From: a virus
DNA: 25,350 nucleotides
IMG/VR virus record: IMGVR_UViG_3300018481_000068
Coordinates: 1 to 25,350 of that record
Direction: 5' to 3' (one strand)
In this document: positions 8,342 to 25,350 of the stretch, one piece after another
Position numbering within the stretch: the first letter of the stretch is position 1
How the letters are laid out: each line of letters begins with the position of its first letter
Translations under genes and position numbers: made by a program
Notes under the pieces: model-generated
Database searches by the model: none
What the model saw: only the letters and a program-made list of their open reading frames with translations
What the model was told of the DNA's origin: nothing

Positions 8342-8682
8342 GACTCTCGGGCACCAGACTGCCAGCAGAGGCCGGCAAGGCCCTCAGCGACGAGCTTATG
8401 GGCGCGGAGGGCCTGTTTGGCCCCGATGGCCGCGACATCGCGGTGGTCGCCACTATCGATGACCGCGACAGCAACCGCTGGCGGGCGTCCGGGCTCTACC
8501 GGGTGCGCACCAAGGTGCGGCTGCGGGTGGCCACAGGAGTCGGACAGGCGGCGGCACTGGCCGCGCTGATGCAGTTCTTCGTCCGCAACCATGCCGGCAG
8601 GCGCTGGCGGCTGCTCGGGCTGGAGCCTATGGCCGGCAAGGTGACCAAGGCGCGAAGGCGTCGAAAGAGGGAAGAACCATGA
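8329..8682 (+). CDS. Small phage protein of unknown function
   Basis: A 117-residue protein starting at GTG 8329, chosen because AAGAGG lies just upstream and because an earlier in-frame ATG (8134) would add a sequence that is only a shadow of the nuclease gene. ATG 8398 (MGAEGLFGP) is an alternative. The centre (GRDIAVVATIDDRDSNRWRASGLYRVRTKVRLRVA) looks beta-rich, followed by a helix and a very basic C-terminus (KARRRRKREEP). It overlaps the methyltransferase by four bases (ATGA), so they are coupled. I do not recognise the family. Confidence 0.6.
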   Translation: MAAVGLSGTRLPAEAGKALSDELMGAEGLFGPDGRDIAVVATIDDRDSNRWRASGLYRVRTKVRLRVATGVGQAAALAALMQFFVRNHAGRRWRLLGLEPMAGKVTKARRRRKREEP

Positions 8683-9944
8683 AGACCGAGCCTCGCGACC
8701 CCCACACCCTGACCCCGCACCCACGCAACAGCCGTCTGCACTCCAACGAGCAGATCACCGCGCTGGGCCGGGCAATGGTCGAGTTCGGCTTCCACCAGCC
8801 GGTGGTGATCGATGAGGGAGGGACCATCCTTGTCGGCCACGCCCGCACCCTCGCGGCGATCGACATCGGCCTGAAGCAGATCCCGTGTGTTATCGCCAGC
8901 AATTTCAGCGAGGCGCAGAAGCGCGCCCTTGTTATCGCGGACAACCGCCTGCACGAGTTCGGCGCCGGCTGGGATGAAGACATCCTGACCGACGAACTGC
9001 GGGCGCTGATGGCGCAGGGCATCGACGTGAGCCTGACCGGGTTTGACGTGCCGGAGCCCATCGTCAAGCCACGCGCCGATGAGGACGCCGTGCCACCACC
9101 CCCGGATCAGCCCACATGCCGGCTCGGCGACGTCTGGGAGATGAACGGCCACCGGCTGGTCGTCGGGGACAGTCGCGACCCTGCGGTAATAACCCTTGCC
9201 TGCGGTGGGCAAGGGTCATCACGGGAGCGCGATGTACCGTTTATAGGCCTAGACAAAACGCCGAATCTCATGGTCACCGATCCGCCCTACGGTGTCGACT
9301 ACGACCCACAGTGGCGGGTGGACGCGATCCCCGACGGCACCAAGCGCGCCACCGGCAGGGCGATGAACGACCACATCGCCGACTGGCGCGAGGTCTGGGC
9401 GCTGTTCCCCGGAGACGTGGCCTACGTCTGGCACTCGGACCTCTACGCCTCCACCTGCGACGAGAGCCTGCGCGCGGCGGGTTTTTTGCCCTTGACCCAG
9501 ATCATCTGGGCCAAGCCCCGATTCGCGATCGGTCAAGGGAATTACCACTGGCAGCACGAGCCGTGCCTTTACGCTGTCAGGGGCAAACGCAAGGGCAAAT
9601 CAAAAATAGACTGGCAGGGCGGCGTGCAGTCGACGGTGTGGAACGTGGGCCATCGCCGGCTGGCCTACGGGCATGGAAGCCAGAAGCCAGTTGAGGTTAT
9701 GAGGCGTCCTATCCTCAATCACACACGCCCCGGCGACGTGGTGCTCGACCCTTTTCTGGGCACTGGCACTACGATAATTGCCGCCCAGACATGCGCCCGC
9801 AGGTGCGTGGGTGTCGAGTTGAACCCGCGCTACGCAGATGTTATCGTGACGCGCTACCAGTCGTTCACTGGCCAAGGAGCAACACTAGCCTCCACAGGCC
9901 TGTCGTTCGCAGATGTGGCCGAGCAGCGGCTGGTAGCGCCCTGA
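8679..9944 (+). CDS. ParB-domain DNA methyltransferase (DPPY type)
   Basis: A 421-residue fusion. Residues 7-100 are a ParB-like N domain (LTPHPRNSR, VGHARTLAA). The methyltransferase follows: DPPYG (201-205, catalytic motif IV) comes before a FLGTGTT loop near residue 370 that binds S-adenosylmethionine. That order is typical of beta-class N6-adenine or N4-cytosine methylases. The HEPCLYAVRGKRKG segment matches this phage family. The enzyme should methylate phage DNA, for example to avoid host restriction. GAGGGAAG lies before ATG 8679. Residues about 170-191 form an insert containing a palindrome (9192-9216) that is absent from the paralogue at 10779. The target base and site are not deducible. 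Confidence 0.88.
   Translation: MKTEPRDPHTLTPHPRNSRLHSNEQITALGRAMVEFGFHQPVVIDEGGTILVGHARTLAAIDIGLKQIPCVIASNFSEAQKRALVIADNRLHEFGAGWDEDILTDELRALMAQGIDVSLTGFDVPEPIVKPRADEDAVPPPPDQPTCRLGDVWEMNGHRLVVGDSRDPAVITLACGGQGSSRERDVPFIGLDKTPNLMVTDPPYGVDYDPQWRVDAIPDGTKRATGRAMNDHIADWREVWALFPGDVAYVWHSDLYASTCDESLRAAGFLPLTQIIWAKPRFAIGQGNYHWQHEPCLYAVRGKRKGKSKIDWQGGVQSTVWNVGHRRLAYGHGSQKPVEVMRRPILNHTRPGDVVLDPFLGTGTTIIAAQTCARRCVGVELNPRYADVIVTRYQSFTGQGATLASTGLSFADVAEQRLVAP
9192..9216. repeat. Perfect 25-bp hairpin inside the methyltransferase gene
   Basis: Arms ACCCTTGCC (9192-9200) and GGCAAGGGT (9208-9216) are perfectly complementary, with loop TGCGGTG. The same element occurs at 12431-12455 with the loop reversed, so one is the inverse of the other. 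It is in-frame and lies in a segment that the paralogue lacks. Confidence 0.75.
9489..9539. repeat. CCCTTGACC inverted pair flanking a palindrome, inside the methyltransferase gene
   Basis: CCCTTGACC (9489-9497) and GGTCAAGGG (9531-9539) form a perfect 9-bp inverted repeat. Between them CCCAGATCATCTGGG (9496-9510) is a perfect odd-length palindrome, overlapping the left arm. The bases encode conserved methyltransferase residues, so part of the pattern is due to protein constraint. Confidence 0.4.
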
Positions 9945-10669: not shown

Positions 10670-10798
10670 GTGGCGCGCGCTACAAAACCTTATCCGGGTT
10701 ACCCCCGCGCGTTGCCGGCCCCCAGTTCACCCCCAGAGCAGAGGTTGGCTCCAATGGTGAGTTCGCGAGGGCCGCACAGTGAAAATCGAAATGATTGA
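10670..10798 (+). CDS. Possible small Pro-rich protein (low confidence)
   Basis: An unannotated 42-codon frame starting at GTG 10670, with AAGGAGG upstream at ideal spacing, ending at TGA 10796. The product starts MARATKPYPGYPRALPAPSS and is proline-rich. It overlaps the next gene by 20 bases. Only the good ribosome-binding site supports it. The 190-base gap would otherwise be empty. Confidence 0.28.
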   Translation: MARATKPYPGYPRALPAPSSPPEQRLAPMVSSRGPHSENRND

Positions 10799-11915
10799 GA
10801 TTGAACGTCTTTCTCCACACCCACGCAATTCCAGAACGCATTCACGCGAACAAATTACCGCCATAGGTCGAGCACTACGAGAGTGGGGTTTTACGCAGCC
10901 GGTGGTCGCTGACGAGAACCTCGTCATCCTGATCGGCCATGGCCGCGTCGAAGCCGCCAAGGCGATCGGGCTGAAGACCGCGCCGGTGCTCATCCGCAAG
11001 GGGCTCTCCGACGAGAAGAAGCGCGCGCTGCTGCTCAGCGACAACCGTCTGGCCGAGCTTGGCTCATCGTGGGACGACGGCATCCTGAACGACGAGTTGC
11101 GCTACCTGCTCGACAACGACTTCGACCTGACCCTCACCGCCTTCGACCTCCCGGAGATTCCGCCCGACCGGCTTCCGCCCGCCCCCAAGCCAGACCCTGA
11201 GCCCATCGTCACCGTGCCCGGCGACGTCTGGCACATGGGCGATCACCACCTCGCCTGCGGCAACCCCGGCGCGCAGGCGCAGGTGCTCGACGCGGCACCG
11301 GACCTTCTGGTCACGCAGGCCTTCCAGAGCGACGTGGAGGCGCTGGCAGCGGCGCTGGGGGCGACCGAGGCGCCAGTGGCATACGTCTGGCACACCCCCG
11401 AGATCGGGGCGCTGGTGGCCCGCCTGCTGGAGGCTGCGAGCTTCGAGATACGCTGCCAGATCATCAACGTGCGCGAGCAGACCGGCAGCGGGCGACCCTA
11501 CGCCCTGCAGCACGATCCCTGCTGGTACGCGGTGCGCAAGGGCGCCAAGGCGAGCTTCCATGGCGGGCGCACGCAGTCGACGCTCTGGAAGGCCGGGAAA
11601 ATCCCGGCGTCCGGGGCAGGGCGCTGGCTGCCGATCGAGTGCTGGAAACGGGCGATCATCAACCATACCACCCTCGGGGCCAGCGTGGTGCTCGACCCGC
11701 TCGCCGCCGGCGGCAGCGTCTTCATCGCCGCCCACCAGATCGGGCGCCGGGCAGCCGGGGTGGAAATGGAGCCGTCGATGTGCGATTTTGCAGTGCGGCG
11801 CTGGGAGAACTTCACCGCACGGGAGGCACGACATGGCGGAACAGGGCAAACCTACCGGGAGGTCGCAGAAGAGCGCGGCGCCGGGACCGAAGCCGAGGCC
11901 GAGGCCGAAGCCTGA
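10779..11915 (+). CDS. ParB-methyltransferase paralogue with lost catalytic motifs
   Basis: A 378-residue paralogue of the 8679-9944 protein. The ParB-like N domain is intact (LSPHPRNSR at 11-19, LIGHGRVEAAKAIG at 51-64). Its methyltransferase half keeps the surrounding residues (HDPCWYAVRKG, QSTLWKAG), but motif IV, expected as DPPYG after DLLVT, reads QAFQS (180-184), and the S-adenosylmethionine loop reads LDPLAAGGSVF (305-315) where FxGxG is expected. So it is probably enzymatically dead. The C-terminus is an EAEAEA run that overlaps the small terminase start by 83 bases. GTG 10779 is the start; ATG 10791 is an alternative. It may be a DNA-binding regulator, or serve by sequestering the same sites, but this is inference. 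Confidence 0.82.
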   Translation: MKIEMIEIERLSPHPRNSRTHSREQITAIGRALREWGFTQPVVADENLVILIGHGRVEAAKAIGLKTAPVLIRKGLSDEKKRALLLSDNRLAELGSSWDDGILNDELRYLLDNDFDLTLTAFDLPEIPPDRLPPAPKPDPEPIVTVPGDVWHMGDHHLACGNPGAQAQVLDAAPDLLVTQAFQSDVEALAAALGATEAPVAYVWHTPEIGALVARLLEAASFEIRCQIINVREQTGSGRPYALQHDPCWYAVRKGAKASFHGGRTQSTLWKAGKIPASGAGRWLPIECWKRAIINHTTLGASVVLDPLAAGGSVFIAAHQIGRRAAGVEMEPSMCDFAVRRWENFTAREARHGGTGQTYREVAEERGAGTEAEAEAEA

Positions 11916-17643: not shown

Positions 17644-18045
17644 ATGACCGAAGAGATCGAGTTCACCCGCCTTCAACTGGCCAACGCCATGGCCAAGGCG
17701 TACAGCAGCAGGCAGCCACGGGTGACCTCCGGGGATAAAGGCGGTCAGTGGACCAGCGGAGGCTTCAGCGGCAGCAGCGGTGGCGCGGCGGGGCGCGCCG
17801 CCGACGAGGCAGGCGCCGCAGCCGGGATCCGCATCAAGCCGGGCCGGGGCGACGTTTCGTTCAAACAGGACGCCGACGCCGGCACCGTGATCGGCAGCGC
17901 CCACACCGAGAAGGGCAAGTCCGCGCTGGAGGCAGCCAAGCCCAAGACGGCGCTCGGGGTGGCGCTGATGAAGCCCATCGACGCCTATAAATTCACGATG
18001 GCCGCGCGGAAGCAGGGCCTGAACATCATCGCCCCCGGTGAGTGA
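17644..18045 (+). CDS. Small virion-type protein of unknown function
   Basis: A 133-residue protein with GGGAGGG just before ATG 17644. Residues 25-41 (PRVTSGDKGGQWTSGGF) match the short G-x-G-G-Q-W/F-T motif seen near phage head proteins. The rest is Ala/Gly-rich with a helical C-terminus. It follows the endolysin without a gap. The function is not known. Confidence 0.6.
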   Translation: MTEEIEFTRLQLANAMAKAYSSRQPRVTSGDKGGQWTSGGFSGSSGGAAGRAADEAGAAAGIRIKPGRGDVSFKQDADAGTVIGSAHTEKGKSALEAAKPKTALGVALMKPIDAYKFTMAARKQGLNIIAPGE

Positions 18046-19710: not shown

Positions 19711-21135
19711 ATGGCGGCGAAGACTTCGGCTCAGAAGGCTTGGGAGATCGCGTCCAAGTACGAGCCGAAGCTCGCCGCCGCCATTCGGCAGGCGCTGGCC
19801 ACCTTCAAGGGCAAGGCCAGCGCCGCCCGCATCGAGGCCTACGTCATCAGCGGCGACCTCACCGGCCTCACCCACTACCTGCTGGGAAATTTCGGCGCGT
19901 CGGTGGGGCCGATCGTCATGGTGCTCGATCAGGCAGTCAACGAGGCAGGCCTCGCAGCCGCCACCGAGATCAACGCTGCGCTCAAGCCATTCGGCGTCAA
20001 CGTGCGCACGCAGCTTCCCTTCCCGACCGACGTCCCCGCCGGCATCGTCTTTCAGGGCGTGACCCCGGAGTTCGCCTACAACCCGGTGAACCCCAAGACC
20101 ATCACCGCCGTCCGCACATGGCAGGGCAACCTGATCCAGCAGATGAGCACGAACGCCCGCGCGGTGATCATGGACAACATCCGCGCCGGGCTGGTGGCCG
20201 GCGACAACCCCCGCACCATCGCGCGCGCCGTGCGCAACGGCCTGCCGCTGACCCAGAGCCAGAACCGCGCCGTCCAGAACTTCGACAACGACCTCAAGCG
20301 CATCATCGAGCGCGGCATCGGCAGTGCGCAAAGCTGGGGCATCTACACCCCGCGCCAGATTGCAGAATTGAAACTGGCAAACCCCAAGGTCTACCGGCAA
20401 CTGAACTTCACCCCCGCCGAGGCGCTGCAAGGCCGGCGCTGGGCGAAGATCAGCCGCGCCGCCGGCACCCTCCAGTTCGACCCCAAGACCGGCCTGAAGG
20501 CCAGCAAGCCCGTGGGCTTCGTCGCCCCGCCCGGCACCCAAGGCGGCGAGAACGCCTACCGGCTGACCGCTGACGGCAGGCCTGTCGATGCGATGACCGA
20601 GTGGCGACTGCGCGACAAACGCTTCGATCCGAAGATCTACGCCGTGGTCGAGGCGGAGGAGACTCTTGGCGATGCCCGCAGGAGCGCCGCAGGAGCCCGT
20701 ACAGCGGCGGAGAAGGACGCTGCGGCCAAGGTACTGGCCAAGGCGCAGAAGGCCAAGGAGGAGGCCTTGCAGGCGCTGGAGGCGGCACGCGGCGAGATGG
20801 TCGAGGGCTACAACGCACGCATGGTCAAGCACCGCAGCCAAGTGATCGCCCGGACGGAGTCGCTGCGCGCCGCCAACCTCGGCAGCTACGAGGCATGGCG
20901 GCAAGCGATGGACGACAGCGACCTCTTCGAGCCCAACGAGCTTCGCCGCATCTGGATCACCGCCAAGGATGACCGGGTGCGCATGACCCACCGCATCGCC
21001 TCGGGCCAGAAGACCGGGATCACCGAGCCGTTCATGGTGGACGGCGTCGGGGTGATGTTCCCGCCATCCGGGCCGAACTGCCGCTGCACGGTGGGCTACG
21101 AGGCCAACCTCGGCGGCTTCCCTGCGGGCACCTGA
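19711..21135 (+). CDS. Mu F-like head morphogenesis (minor capsid) protein
   Basis: A 474-residue protein. The C-terminus holds the classic F-like signature: RRIWITAKDDRVRMTH (412-427), then FMVDGVGVMFPPSGPNCRC ending at Cys457 and Cys459. This family (phage_Mu_F) is a minor head protein involved in assembly. The N-terminal 300 residues are helical and lack a known enzyme motif. A helical linker (residues 310-365, Ala/Lys/Glu-rich) joins the parts. ATG 19711 follows AAGG closely. It ends in TGATG, a one-base overlap with the next gene. Confidence 0.85.
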   Translation: MAAKTSAQKAWEIASKYEPKLAAAIRQALATFKGKASAARIEAYVISGDLTGLTHYLLGNFGASVGPIVMVLDQAVNEAGLAAATEINAALKPFGVNVRTQLPFPTDVPAGIVFQGVTPEFAYNPVNPKTITAVRTWQGNLIQQMSTNARAVIMDNIRAGLVAGDNPRTIARAVRNGLPLTQSQNRAVQNFDNDLKRIIERGIGSAQSWGIYTPRQIAELKLANPKVYRQLNFTPAEALQGRRWAKISRAAGTLQFDPKTGLKASKPVGFVAPPGTQGGENAYRLTADGRPVDAMTEWRLRDKRFDPKIYAVVEAEETLGDARRSAAGARTAAEKDAAAKVLAKAQKAKEEALQALEAARGEMVEGYNARMVKHRSQVIARTESLRAANLGSYEAWRQAMDDSDLFEPNELRRIWITAKDDRVRMTHRIASGQKTGITEPFMVDGVGVMFPPSGPNCRCTVGYEANLGGFPAGT

Positions 21136-21377
21136 TGTCGTGGAAAGGCCCCGCTCCGCACCACGGCCCCGCCCCCTCTTGGGTCCGGGTGGTCTGCCCC
21201 GACTGCCAGAAGGCTCGCTACATCAACGGCGCGCAGTTTCGGGCGTCCAGCCACCTGCGGTGCAAGTCCTGCACCTACAAGCGGACGCTCGCCCGTCTGG
21301 CTAAGGAAAAAAGAGGCCCGGCTCAGGGGGAAGTAGAGGGGTGGGTCTCGGGAGCCGGGCCGTCTGGAGGTTGTTGA
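21135..21377 (+). CDS. Small zinc-ribbon protein
   Basis: An 80-residue protein overlapping the F-like gene by one base (TGATG). CPDC and CKSC, 21 residues apart, form a likely zinc ribbon, with basic residues around (KRTLARLAKEKRG). The last third is encoded by the hairpin DNA at 21315-21361 and may be a tail without function. Such small zinc-ribbon proteins, like phage Com, regulate translation or bind nucleic acid. Here the function is not known. Confidence 0.55.
   Translation: MSWKGPAPHHGPAPSWVRVVCPDCQKARYINGAQFRASSHLRCKSCTYKRTLARLAKEKRGPAQGEVEGWVSGAGPSGGC
21315..21361 (-). terminator. Hairpin with U-rich tail on the minus strand
   Basis: GGCCCGGCTC (21315-21324) pairs with GAGCCGGGCC (21352-21361). 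On the minus strand a TCTTTTTTCC tract follows, as in an intrinsic terminator, though the 27-base loop is long. On the plus strand it would be a plain hairpin before the Acb1-like gene, perhaps separating that gene. Confidence 0.4.
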
Positions 21378-21483
21378 GGTCGAGCAGTGATCTCTCACAC
21401 AGCCCGGCCAGCATGCCAGAACCTCTGTCGTGGCGCAACCGCCTGTGGTAGCGTGACCGCAACCTGCACCGAAAGAGAGTGCC

Positions 21484-22014
21484 ATGCTCGATGCCATCCG
21501 CGCCCGCCTCGGGCTGCAAACCTCCATCGAGCGCGTTCGCAAGTACGCCATGCCCTCCACCCTCTACGTCCACCGCCCGCTGCTGAACGGAGCCGAGGTG
21601 GTGCGCTGGGCCAAGAAGGCAGGCTTCCCCTCGACCATCCCCGCCGCCGACATGCACGTCACCGTGGCCTTCTCGCGCCGCCCGGTGGACTGGATGAAGG
21701 TGGGCGCCGGCTATCCGCCTGAACTGCCCAACGTCGACGTGGCCGAAGGCGGGCCGCGCAACCTCGCGGTCTTCGGTGAAGGCGCGGTGGTGCTCCAGTT
21801 CGCCAGCGCCGCGCTGATGTGGCGGCACGAGGACATCCTCGCCGCCGGCGCATCGTGGGACTGGCCCGAGTACCTGCCGCACGTCACCATCACCTACGAC
21901 CCCGGCGAGGTGGAGGTCGATCGGATCGAGCCCTACCAAGGCGAGCTACATTTCGGCCCGGAGAAGTTCGAGCCGGTGGACGAAGACTGGAAGACAAACA
22001 TCAAGGAAGGATGA
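21484..22014 (+). CDS. acb1: Acb1-like 2H phosphoesterase, predicted anti-CBASS protein
   Basis: A 176-residue protein with two H-x-T motifs, MHVTVAFS (His58, Thr60) and PHVTITYD (His133, Thr135), which mark the 2H phosphoesterase superfamily. STLYVHRPLLN (25-35, Tyr28), RRPVDWMKVG (65-74, Trp70), SWDWPEYLPH and GELHFGPE (153-160) match the Acb1 group, including T4 gene 57B. Known Acb1 proteins cut the cyclic nucleotides that CBASS defence makes, so the phage escapes abortive infection. CTGTCG and TAGCGT, 18 bases apart (21425-21454), could be a weak promoter; AAGAGAG precedes the ATG. It lies among late genes like a cargo gene. Predicted, not proven: other 2H proteins ligate or cut RNA. Confidence 0.78.
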   Translation: MLDAIRARLGLQTSIERVRKYAMPSTLYVHRPLLNGAEVVRWAKKAGFPSTIPAADMHVTVAFSRRPVDWMKVGAGYPPELPNVDVAEGGPRNLAVFGEGAVVLQFASAALMWRHEDILAAGASWDWPEYLPHVTITYDPGEVEVDRIEPYQGELHFGPEKFEPVDEDWKTNIKEG

Positions 22015-22019
22015 CCTAA

Positions 22020-22457
22020 ATGGCTGATTTCGTGTTCAATATTGCCAAAGGCGCAGCCGCTGAGATGGTGCGCGACGCACCTGCCAACCTTGGCGTCATG
22101 CTGCTGAAGACCGCCGAGGCCGAGGCCACTCTGAAGGATCGCGCCGACCTCGCGGCGGTGCTCGCCAACGGCAGCGTCGAGTGCGACTTCACCTCCTACG
22201 CCCGCAAGACGGCGATCACGGGCACCATCAACGTCGACAACACCAACGACAGGGTCGACCTCGACTTCCCCGACCAGACGTGGGCACCCGCAGGCGGGGC
22301 GACCAACAACTCGGTCGTGCGTTCCATCGTCTTCTACCAGAACACCGCCGCCGATTCCGGGCGCGTGCCGCTCACCTGCCACGACTTCATCGTGACCACG
22401 GATGGCAGCGACCTGACCCTTCAGGTCAACGCAGCCGGGTTCTACCGGGCCGCATAA
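22020..22457 (+). CDS. Small virion-type protein
   Basis: A 145-residue protein with AAGGAAGG before ATG 22020. The pattern (LGVMLLKTAEAEATLKDRADLAAVLANGSVECDFTSYARKTAI, then a beta-rich part VDNTNDRVDLDFPDQTW) resembles small proteins found near tail-fibre and head-decoration genes of other phages. No catalytic motif. It directly precedes two surface-type paralogues, with no gap. Probably a structural or adaptor protein. Confidence 0.6.
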   Translation: MADFVFNIAKGAAAEMVRDAPANLGVMLLKTAEAEATLKDRADLAAVLANGSVECDFTSYARKTAITGTINVDNTNDRVDLDFPDQTWAPAGGATNNSVVRSIVFYQNTAADSGRVPLTCHDFIVTTDGSDLTLQVNAAGFYRAA

Positions 22458-24125: not shown

Positions 24126-24476
24126 TTGGCGATCAGCGAGCCATACGAACTTGACGGGGTCGTGATCGGCCTCACTGAACTTTCGATCTGCTCTGGCACG
24201 ACCACGCTGGCGACGATCACCGACGACGGGGTCTACCAGCTATGGCTCGACGCAGGGACCATGATAAAGGGCGACGAGTTCATCGTCCGCGCCTACGAGA
24301 AGGTGGAGGGGACGGGCGGCGTCAAGAAGATCTTTGCTCAGTGGTCGCTGATGGGCGTCCAGAGCGAGATCTTCGTCACCCCGACCTTCGTGCTGATCAA
24401 CGGCTGGGACTTCACCATCCAGAGGCTGGCGGGGGCTGACCGCGCCTTCGACGCCTCGATCAGGAAGGTGGCATGA
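24126..24476 (+). CDS. Small beta-rich virion-type protein with TTG start
   Basis: A 116-residue protein. I set the start at TTG 24126 because AAGGAGG lies eight bases upstream; an ATG-based extension from 24063 lies in the previous gene. The pattern (VVIGLTELSICSGTTTLATITDDGVYQLWLDAG, KGDEFIVRAYEKV, FVLINGWDFTIQRL) is beta-sandwich-like. It overlaps the next gene by ATGA. Probably virion-associated; no family is recognised. Confidence 0.6.
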   Translation: MAISEPYELDGVVIGLTELSICSGTTTLATITDDGVYQLWLDAGTMIKGDEFIVRAYEKVEGTGGVKKIFAQWSLMGVQSEIFVTPTFVLINGWDFTIQRLAGADRAFDASIRKVA

Positions 24477-25350
24477 GCTTTTTCGTCTGGTTCACTGGCG
24501 CGACCGAGGCTTCGGGCACACCGTCGGCGGCAGGAACGCCGATCGGGCTGCCTGCCGAGGCCGACAGCGCCACTGCACTGGGCAAAGCCAAGGTCAAGGC
24601 GATAGGCCTCGCCACCGAGATCGACACCCCCTCCGCTTTCGGCCACGGCTCCAAGGAGATCGGGCTGCCGTCGAGCGCCCACACCGCGCTGGCGCTGGGC
24701 AGGAAAAGGACACGGTCGATCGGCCTCGCCACCGAGACCGGCACCGCCATCGTGGCTCGCCCCGTCAGGGCGACAGCGATCGGCCTCGCTCCTAACAATC
24801 AGTTCGTCATCGGCCTTCGCCGCGTGAGGACACACAAGGTCGGCCAGCCGTCGACCACCACCAGCGCGCTGCCGATGGTGCCCGCTCTCAGCGGCGGTGG
24901 TGGTGCCCTGTGGACCCCCGCGCAGATCACCGCAGGCATGGTAAGCTGGCTCGACGCCGCCGACGCTCCGCAACTGGTGTTCAGCGGCTCCAACCTCACG
25001 CAATGGAAGGACAAGTCGCCCGCCGCCAATCATGCGGTGCCGTTTGTGACGGGGCCGACGCTCACCTCGATCAACAGCCTTGGGTCGCTGGCATTCAGCG
25101 CGCAGGGCCTGCACGCGGGGGCGGCGATCTCGCTCGGCGACTTCACGGTCTTCGCGGTGTTCAAGGCGCTGTCGACAGGCTCGTTCGAGCGCCTTGTCGA
25201 TCAGGACTTCGCCAACGGCTTCTGGCTTGGCCGCAATGCCACCGCCGCAGCATGGGGCGGCGGCGTCCGCAACGTCACCGACCCCTACGGCTACTACGTC
25301 ACGCTGGCGGACGGCGAGACGCATCAGGTGATGACCCGCCGCAGCGGCGC
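24473..25350 (+). CDS. Repeat-bearing LamG-like protein (partial), candidate receptor-binding or tail protein
   Basis: The frame is open for 292 codons to the right edge, so the C-terminus is missing. After a 22-residue start come five units of about 20 residues with an IGLAtE-x-x-TA-x-x-LG-x-x-K pattern (residues 23-121), then a Gly-rich hinge. From residue about 147 (LWTPAQITAGMVSWLDAADAPQLV and so on) the chain has the beta pattern of a LamG/concanavalin-like sugar-binding domain (WKDKSPAANHAV, SLGDFTVFAVFKA, ERLVDQDFANGFWLGRN). That layout suits a host-contacting tail protein. The ATGA overlap with the previous gene indicates coupling. Confidence 0.7.
   Translation, partial: MSFFVWFTGATEASGTPSAAGTPIGLPAEADSATALGKAKVKAIGLATEIDTPSAFGHGSKEIGLPSSAHTALALGRKRTRSIGLATETGTAIVARPVRATAIGLAPNNQFVIGLRRVRTHKVGQPSTTTSALPMVPALSGGGGALWTPAQITAGMVSWLDAADAPQLVFSGSNLTQWKDKSPAANHAVPFVTGPTLTSINSLGSLAFSAQGLHAGAAISLGDFTVFAVFKALSTGSFERLVDQDFANGFWLGRNATAAAWGGGVRNVTDPYGYYVTLADGETHQVMTRRSG
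24539..24835 (+). repeat. Five 19-20-residue coding repeats in the LamG-like protein
   Basis: Units start PIGLP, AIGLA, EIGLP, SIGLA, AIGLA at residues 23, 43, 62, 82 and 102. The protein pattern repeats; the DNA has diverged. Similar short Gly-Leu-Ala-Thr-Glu repeats occur in other phage virion proteins. Confidence 0.65.

What the first reader, a model, noticed from the sequence alone, without database searches (positions are those of the whole stretch)
21484..22014. Acb1-like anti-CBASS candidate placed as cargo in a virion operon
Seen: two H-x-T motifs, with Tyr28, Trp70 and a C-terminal Glu region arranged as in Acb1. Known: Acb1 (T4 gp57B type) degrades the cyclic nucleotide signals of CBASS. 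Inferred: this phage neutralises CBASS, and the hairpin and weak promoter on the left side mark it as a movable cargo gene. Its presence also implies that hosts of this phage often carry CBASS.
Basis: partly seen in the sequence, partly recalled or inferred. Interest (0 to 1): 0.72.

Follow-up and report, generated by a model that had tools for sequence, protein, structure and literature searches.

The report
Stand-alone Acb1 anti-CBASS enzyme, phage operon
The gene is a real, apparently intact member of the known Acb1 family of phage enzymes that destroy the alarm molecules of a bacterial defence system (CBASS), and its closest relatives are mostly built into parts of the virus particle, which makes it testable whether such phages carry the enzyme into the cell ready-made.

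Summary
Window 21484-22014 (+) encodes a 176-aa 2H phosphoesterase of the Acb1 family. It hits Pfam PF23474 at E 1e-42. The AlphaFold model (pLDDT 93) matches the FBB1 Acb1-cGAMP structure best (Z 17.1, rmsd 1.9 Å; LigT about 11). Both HxT motifs, Tyr28, Trp127, Glu163 and Trp169 align with T4 Acb1 H44/T46, H113/T115, Y12, F107, E141 and W147. The left-side hairpin is not unusually stable, no promoter-like site was found, and base composition matches the neighbours, so 'movable cargo' is unsupported.
The context is more telling. 79 of the 80 closest viral relatives are C-terminal domains of portal-type ORFs (the other is cut by its contig end). Others are fused to prohead proteases, and in sister phages the domain heads a ~1640-aa protein with Nudix and other effector domains at the corresponding site. 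The catalytic tetrad is nearly always kept. In the solved Pam3 portal the equivalent domain is absent from the atomic model. Head packaging of such 2H domains was already proposed (PMC5512222, PMC9503650). Verdict: a new, detached member of a known family; anti-CBASS chemistry very likely, virion delivery plausible but unproven.

The parts
21484..22014 (+). Acb1-family 2H phosphoesterase, 176 aa, stand-alone; catalytic H58/T60 and H133/T135; pocket-equivalent Y28, W127, E163, W169
   Evidence: Pfam PF23474 E 1.1e-42; model against 7t27 Z 17.1; residue columns
21465..21483 (+). leader with a purine-rich GAAAGAGAG stretch just upstream of the ATG, probable ribosome-binding site
   Evidence: sequence read directly; not tested
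21135..21377 (+). small CxxC zinc-ribbon-like ORF, 80 aa, immediately after MuF
   Evidence: weak Pfam DUF7836 E 2e-5, just below cut-off
19711..21135 (+). MuF-domain head morphogenesis protein; the same gene precedes the Acb1-bearing giant ORF in sister phages
   Evidence: Pfam PF04233, PHROG 3517; 53-54% identity in the alignment with L087-L089
14118..15686 (+). Mu-type portal protein, without a fused Acb1 domain
   Evidence: Pfam PF06074 E 9e-32; about 60% identical portals in L087-L089
12359..13999 (+). terminase large subunit
17644..18045 (+). 133-aa ORF carrying the QPRVTSGDKGGQW motif found directly after the Acb1 domain of the sister giant proteins; possible relic or second virion effector
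   Evidence: phmmer E 1.7e-11 to the L089 giant ORF and motif scan; leader similarity shuffle p 0.001-0.01
22020..22457 (+). next gene, starts 5 bp after the Acb1 stop; PHROG 26662, function unknown
   Evidence: relatives fetched carry no Acb1 nearby

Best explanation
The gene makes an active Acb1-type 2H phosphoesterase, produced with the head and virion proteins. It opens the cyclic di- and trinucleotide signals of CBASS (3'3'-cGAMP, cUA, cAAA) on the 3' side of an adenosine by metal-independent acid-base catalysis with the H58/T60 and H133/T135 tetrad, so the CBASS effector is not switched on. It is a detached member of a clade in which the same domain is normally built into head proteins (portal, prohead protease, or a multi-effector protein beside MuF). 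Shown here: family, fold, catalytic residues, operon position, fusion patterns of relatives. Inferred: substrate and anti-CBASS action (from tested family members), late expression, and any association with the virion head.
For: Pfam Acb1 145.7 bits, against 21.6 and 20.9 bits for the generic 2H families, both below their cut-offs. Solved Acb1 7t26 E 1.9e-9 and Pam3 portal C-terminus E 5e-31 by sequence. Model pLDDT 93; best folds 7t27 Z 17.1 and 7t26 Z 16.1, against LigT about 11. Tetrad and pocket columns Y28, W127, E163, W169 kept. T4 Acb1 and nine further Acb1 proteins tested in PMC9117128 all cleaved 3'3'-cGAMP and cAAA. Catalytic Hx[TS]/Hx[TS] is kept in 164 of 165 portal_3-fused, 7/7 HK97-portal-fused, 10/10 polyvalent and 8/9 XkdF-fused copies (repeated contigs counted), so activity appears to be under selection across architectures. 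Virion operon and corresponding site in sister phages L087-L089.
Against: No activity was measured. T4 W74, one of the stacking aromatics, is Ala95 here and Glu/Asp in most of the clade, so substrate preference could differ. Whether any of the nine further Acb1 proteins tested in the literature belonged to the portal-fused clade could not be determined. The window is a fragment of unknown host, so CBASS in its host is unknown.
Confidence: 0.82

Rival explanations
1. Virion-delivered version of the above: the protein is packaged in the head (by itself or bound to head proteins) and enters the cell with the DNA, so that CBASS signals are destroyed from the first minutes, before phage transcription.
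For: Relatives are fused to head proteins: three portal families, several prohead proteases, and a giant protein with Nudix and ADP-ribosyltransferase domains next to MuF. In 8hds the Pam3 portal chain is modelled for 442 of 621 residues and the match ends at residue 431, so the Acb1 domain (465-619) is absent from the model, as expected for a flexible or removed domain. Relatives of the giant's other parts are annotated 'phage particle associated' in Yersinia phage fHe-Yen8-01. Proposed for 2H domains in PMC5512222 and PMC9503650.
Against: The window copy is not fused and has no shown packaging signal; its N-terminal leader is not significantly like that of the giants (p 0.05-0.10). A domain missing from a model may be disordered, cleaved or lost. 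Fusion to a late protein can also serve only expression or position.
Confidence: 0.3
2. A 2H enzyme of RNA repair or RNA end processing (LigT-like, 2',3'-cyclic phosphate or 2'-5' linkages) rather than an anti-CBASS enzyme.
For: Same superfamily; weak hits to 2_5_RNA_ligase2 and LigT_PEase; PHROG 755 is labelled 'RNA ligase', the same old label as T4 57B.
Against: Acb1 profile and structures win by a wide margin; the Glu141 and lid Trp147 equivalents are present. PMC5512222 reports that these 2H types were never seen associated with RNA ligases.
Confidence: 0.1
3. A relic or purely structural domain left from a fused portal or giant protein, no longer working as an enzyme.
For: Sister phages carry it as the head of a giant protein; here only the first domain remains, while a motif-bearing ORF lies 3 kb upstream.
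Against: Full-length domain, complete tetrad, normal codon composition (GC3 0.881), tight spacing to the next gene; no other giant-protein parts follow it.
Confidence: 0.05

Closest known systems
Acb1 (T4 gp57B / FBB1 Acb1; Pfam PF23474; PDB 7t26, 7t27; PMC9117128)
   Same: Same fold (Z 17), HxT/HxT tetrad, Y12/F107/W147/E141 equivalents, similar length, stand-alone gene
   Different: 29% identity in the structural alignment; W74 replaced by Ala; lies in a virion operon after MuF, not beside ipI; falls with virion-fused forms rather than T4-like proteins in the tree
Portal-fused Acb1 domains (PF06381-PF23474, e.g. phages Pam3, phiPSA1, Ssp-JY40)
   Same: Closest sequences, up to about 58% identity
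   Different: Those are C-terminal domains of ~600-aa portals; here the domain is free and the phage's own portal is of the Mu type
2H domains of polyvalent or MuF/portal-fused phage proteins (PMC5512222, PMC9503650)
   Same: Same superfamily and same kind of context; sister phages L087-L089 show an Acb1-Nudix-HipA-like protein, with an ADP-ribosyltransferase domain detected by Pfam in L087
   Different: The passages read describe fused forms and propose RNase or nucleotide-signal degradation without naming Acb1; the window copy is single-domain
E. coli LigT and other 2H phosphoesterases
   Same: Fold superfamily and HxT motifs
   Different: Z about 11, rmsd 3.3-3.9 Å; no Acb1 profile match

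Membership tests
Acb1 (PF23474) | Match to the family profile over its curated cut-off | tested here: met
   145.7 bits against cut-off 27, model positions 2-143 of 144
Acb1 (PF23474) | HxT/HxT catalytic tetrad (T4 H44, T46, H113, T115) | tested here: met
   H58, T60, H133, T135
Acb1 (PF23474) | Aromatic base-stacking set (T4 Y12, W74, F107, W147) | tested here: inconclusive
   Y28, W127 and W169 present; W74 position is Ala95. W70 is in another column; whether it takes over the role in space was not tested
Acb1 (PF23474) | Glu that reads the adenine N6 (T4 E141) | tested here: met
   E163, gap-free with the lid Trp apart from nothing between them
Acb1 (PF23474) | Best fold match to solved Acb1 rather than LigT | tested here: met
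   7t27 Z 17.1, 7t26 Z 16.1, LigT about 11
Acb1 (PF23474) | Cleavage of 3'3'-cGAMP / cAAA and protection from CBASS | not testable with these tools
   needs purified protein and infection assays
Polyvalent / head-delivered effector (PMC5512222) | Several effector domains in one polypeptide | tested here: not met
   window gene has one domain only; sister phages meet it
Polyvalent / head-delivered effector (PMC5512222) | Encoded among virion genes | tested here: met
   TerL, portal and MuF upstream on the same strand
Polyvalent / head-delivered effector (PMC5512222) | Protein present in virions and ejected | not testable with these tools
   needs virion proteomics
Movable cargo (moron) gene | Own promoter and terminator and atypical composition | tested here: not met
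   no sigma-70-like site; hairpin z -1.19; GC and GC3 as neighbours. Non-sigma-70 promoters were not covered
LigT / 2_5_RNA_ligase2 | Profile score over the curated cut-off | tested here: not met
   20.9 against 23.3 and 21.6 against 27

The most novel reading that the evidence does not exclude
A CBASS counter-enzyme carried inside the virion: an Acb1 domain repeatedly joined to head-interior proteins (three portal families, several prohead proteases, a MuF-adjacent multi-effector protein), and freed as a separate gene in this phage, so that the phage enters with the enzyme that removes the alarm signal already loaded.
Probability: 0.3. Interest if true: 0.75.

Novelty: new member of a known kind. 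Interest (0 to 1): 0.42.

Why it matters
Acb1 is usually described as a free enzyme made in the infected cell. In the clade around this gene it is mostly part of the virus particle's own assembly proteins, with its active site kept. If it travels in the head, phages disarm CBASS before making any protein, which changes how the timing of CBASS defence and counter-defence is understood. Portal-Acb1 phages are already isolated (Pam3, phiPSA1), so the idea can be tested by virion proteomics and an activity assay. It also means many 'portal proteins' and 'prohead proteases' in databases carry an easily overlooked counter-defence domain.

Tried and rejected
Movable cargo: rejected on hairpin z-score, promoter scan and base composition; no Rfam or tRNA feature in the window.
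Trp70 = Trp74: rejected by alignment.
N-terminal leader as a relic of the giants' leader: not significant (p 0.05-0.10), so not claimed.
Broken giant protein: the ORFs after the Acb1 gene show no similarity to the rest of the giants.
Genome scan with the MuF alignment for hosts: no relative, so the host stays unknown.
Relatives of the next gene, 22020-22457 (63 loci): none has an Acb1 domain nearby, so they are not a fixed pair.
Pam3 portal 8hds did not appear among fold matches of the isolated Acb1 model, although its sequence contains the domain; the portal model shows why, since only 442 residues are modelled.
The tree does not resolve the window's exact sister: it sits in an open fork of mixed architectures, so 'derived from a portal fusion' is likely but not shown.
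Literature searches for Acb1 or anti-CBASS with portal, capsid, virion or ejection found no paper stating the Acb1-portal link by that name in the open library held; the 2H-portal/MuF link is in PMC5512222 and PMC9503650.

Full report
Observation. The ORF at 21484-22014 (+) is real and encodes 176 aa. The whole record is a 25,350-bp IMG/VR contig without a named host. Pfam places the protein in PF23474 (Acb1) at E 1.1e-42, with only sub-threshold hits to generic 2H families. PHROG 755, labelled 'RNA ligase', is the best PHROG, and the C-terminus of a portal PHROG is second. By sequence the solved relatives are the C-terminus of the Pam3 portal (8hds, residues 465-619, E 5e-31) and Acb1 itself (7t26, E 2e-9).

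Residues. Aligned to T4 gp57B, the active-site pairs are H58/T60 and H133/T135. Y28, W127, E163 and W169 match T4 Y12, F107, E141 and W147, whose roles are described in PMC9117128.

Structure. The AlphaFold model made from an alignment of fetched relatives has mean pLDDT 93.4. Its best match is FBB1 Acb1 in complex with 3'3'-cGAMP after reaction (7t27, Z 17.1, 134 residues, 1.9 Å), then apo Acb1 (Z 16.1), a Burkholderia phage phosphodiesterase (Z 14.0), and LigT about 11. Activity cannot be tested here, but T4 Acb1 and nine further family members were all active in PMC9117128.

Cargo claim. The inverted repeat exists but is no more stable than shuffles (z -1.19). No sigma-70-like promoter was found. 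GC and GC3 equal those of the head genes around it. Nothing marks it as a recent insert.

Relatives. Of the 80 best viral loci, 79 have the domain at the C-terminus of a portal-type ORF (most about 600-650 aa); in the remaining one, L024, the contig begins 35 codons before the match, so its N-terminal part is missing. Pfam checks on examples show fusions to PF06381 portals, Mu-type portals (L093, L094, L174, L204) and HK97-type portals (L071, L179, L190), to XkdF-like proteases (L095, L103, L104, L131, and at or near the cut-off in L107, L110, L202), to the HK97 prohead protease PF04586 (L187), and to DUF2213 (L098, L171). Across 207 ORFs, repeated contigs included, 165 matched a home-made portal_3 profile. 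Complete stand-alone forms in this set are the window and the T4-like proteins. The search was seeded by the window, so the many T4-like stand-alone genes (one search lists 1424 phage records, mostly enterobacterial) are under-represented.

Sister phages. Three contigs (L087, L088, L089; L099 is a fourth carrying the same giant ORF) have a Mu-type portal about 60% and a MuF protein about 48% identical (best segment) to the window's. About 1-2 kb after MuF they carry a giant ORF of up to 1646 aa that begins with an Acb1 domain (44-46% identical) and continues with Nudix and a weak HipA-like kinase match; an ADP-ribosyltransferase domain is called by Pfam in L087. The motif QPRVPSG..GGQW follows the Acb1 domain and recurs before the kinase region. 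The same motif stands in window gene 17644-18045. Parts of the giant match genes that a Yersinia phage record annotates as particle-associated. The window therefore has, at the corresponding place, only the first domain of this protein as its own gene. The tree puts the window among mixed virion-fused forms and far from T4-like proteins, without resolving its sister.

Mechanism. Catalytic Hx[TS]/Hx[TS] is kept in nearly every fused copy, which argues that the enzyme works while attached to head proteins or after release from them. In the solved Pam3 portal the chain is modelled for 442 of 621 residues, and a model of a portal-Acb1 protein aligns to residues 11-431 only, so the domain is flexible, cleaved or lost in the particle studied. 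A portal's C-terminal region and the prohead protease both face the head interior (established knowledge of portals and proheads), which fits packaging. That idea is not new: 2H domains fused to MuF or portal were proposed to be head-packaged and to attack host nucleotide signals (PMC5512222; PMC9503650). For the window's free copy, cytosolic action during late expression is the simpler reading, and delivery in the head is a real but unproven alternative.

CBASS link. In 50 bacterial genomes that carry the domain, 18 have a SMODS match over the cut-off. In one family sample, 5 of 16 Acb1-positive and 29 of 282 negative genomes have one (p 0.025). Genome size, completeness and kinship were not controlled. 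One prophage (L197) appears to carry both a SMODS/SLATT-like pair and a portal-Acb1.

Verdict. The finding is right about the family, wrong about W74 and the cargo signals, and silent on the more interesting context. It is a new member of a known kind.

Noticed in passing
L197:3348-8441 (Mesorhizobium sp. YIM 152430 contig): A SMODS/CD-NTase ORF (PF18144, 95 bits) and a weak SLATT-like 2TM ORF (PF18186, below cut-off) lie on the minus strand directly next to a TerS-like ORF and the portal-Acb1 gene: a prophage that may carry its own CBASS together with the matching counter-enzyme.
   Followed up: partly
L088:9080-13996, L087:6899-11839, L089:11858-15349: Giant ORFs (Acb1, Nudix, HipA-like kinase; C-terminal ADP-ribosyltransferase called by Pfam in L087) with a repeated QPRVPSG..GGQW/RW linker motif; a multi-effector protein beside MuF.
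   Followed up: partly
window 17644-18045: 133-aa ORF next to an endolysin carries the same linker motif (QPRVTSGDKGGQW) and a similar leader; possible second head-linked effector or targeting tag.
   Followed up: partly
L068:4564-7503 and L205:6375-9047: Portal-Acb1 proteins with further C-terminal extensions; in L068 an ADP-ribosyltransferase domain (PF03496 E 1e-24).
   Followed up: no
L202:7311-10472: Nudix, Acb1 and a borderline XkdF-like protease in one 1054-aa ORF (Rhodocyclaceae MAG), another effector and prohead protease combination.
   Followed up: no
window 8679-9944 and 10779-11915: Two ParB-like/N6-N4 methyltransferase fusion genes in one phage, both matching PHROG 498; the second has a truncated-looking methylase match.
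   Followed up: no
window 24338-25324 (-): 328-aa minus-strand ORF at the contig end without any family match (a fragment of it resembles L216:9951-10352, 29%); may be spurious.
   Followed up: no
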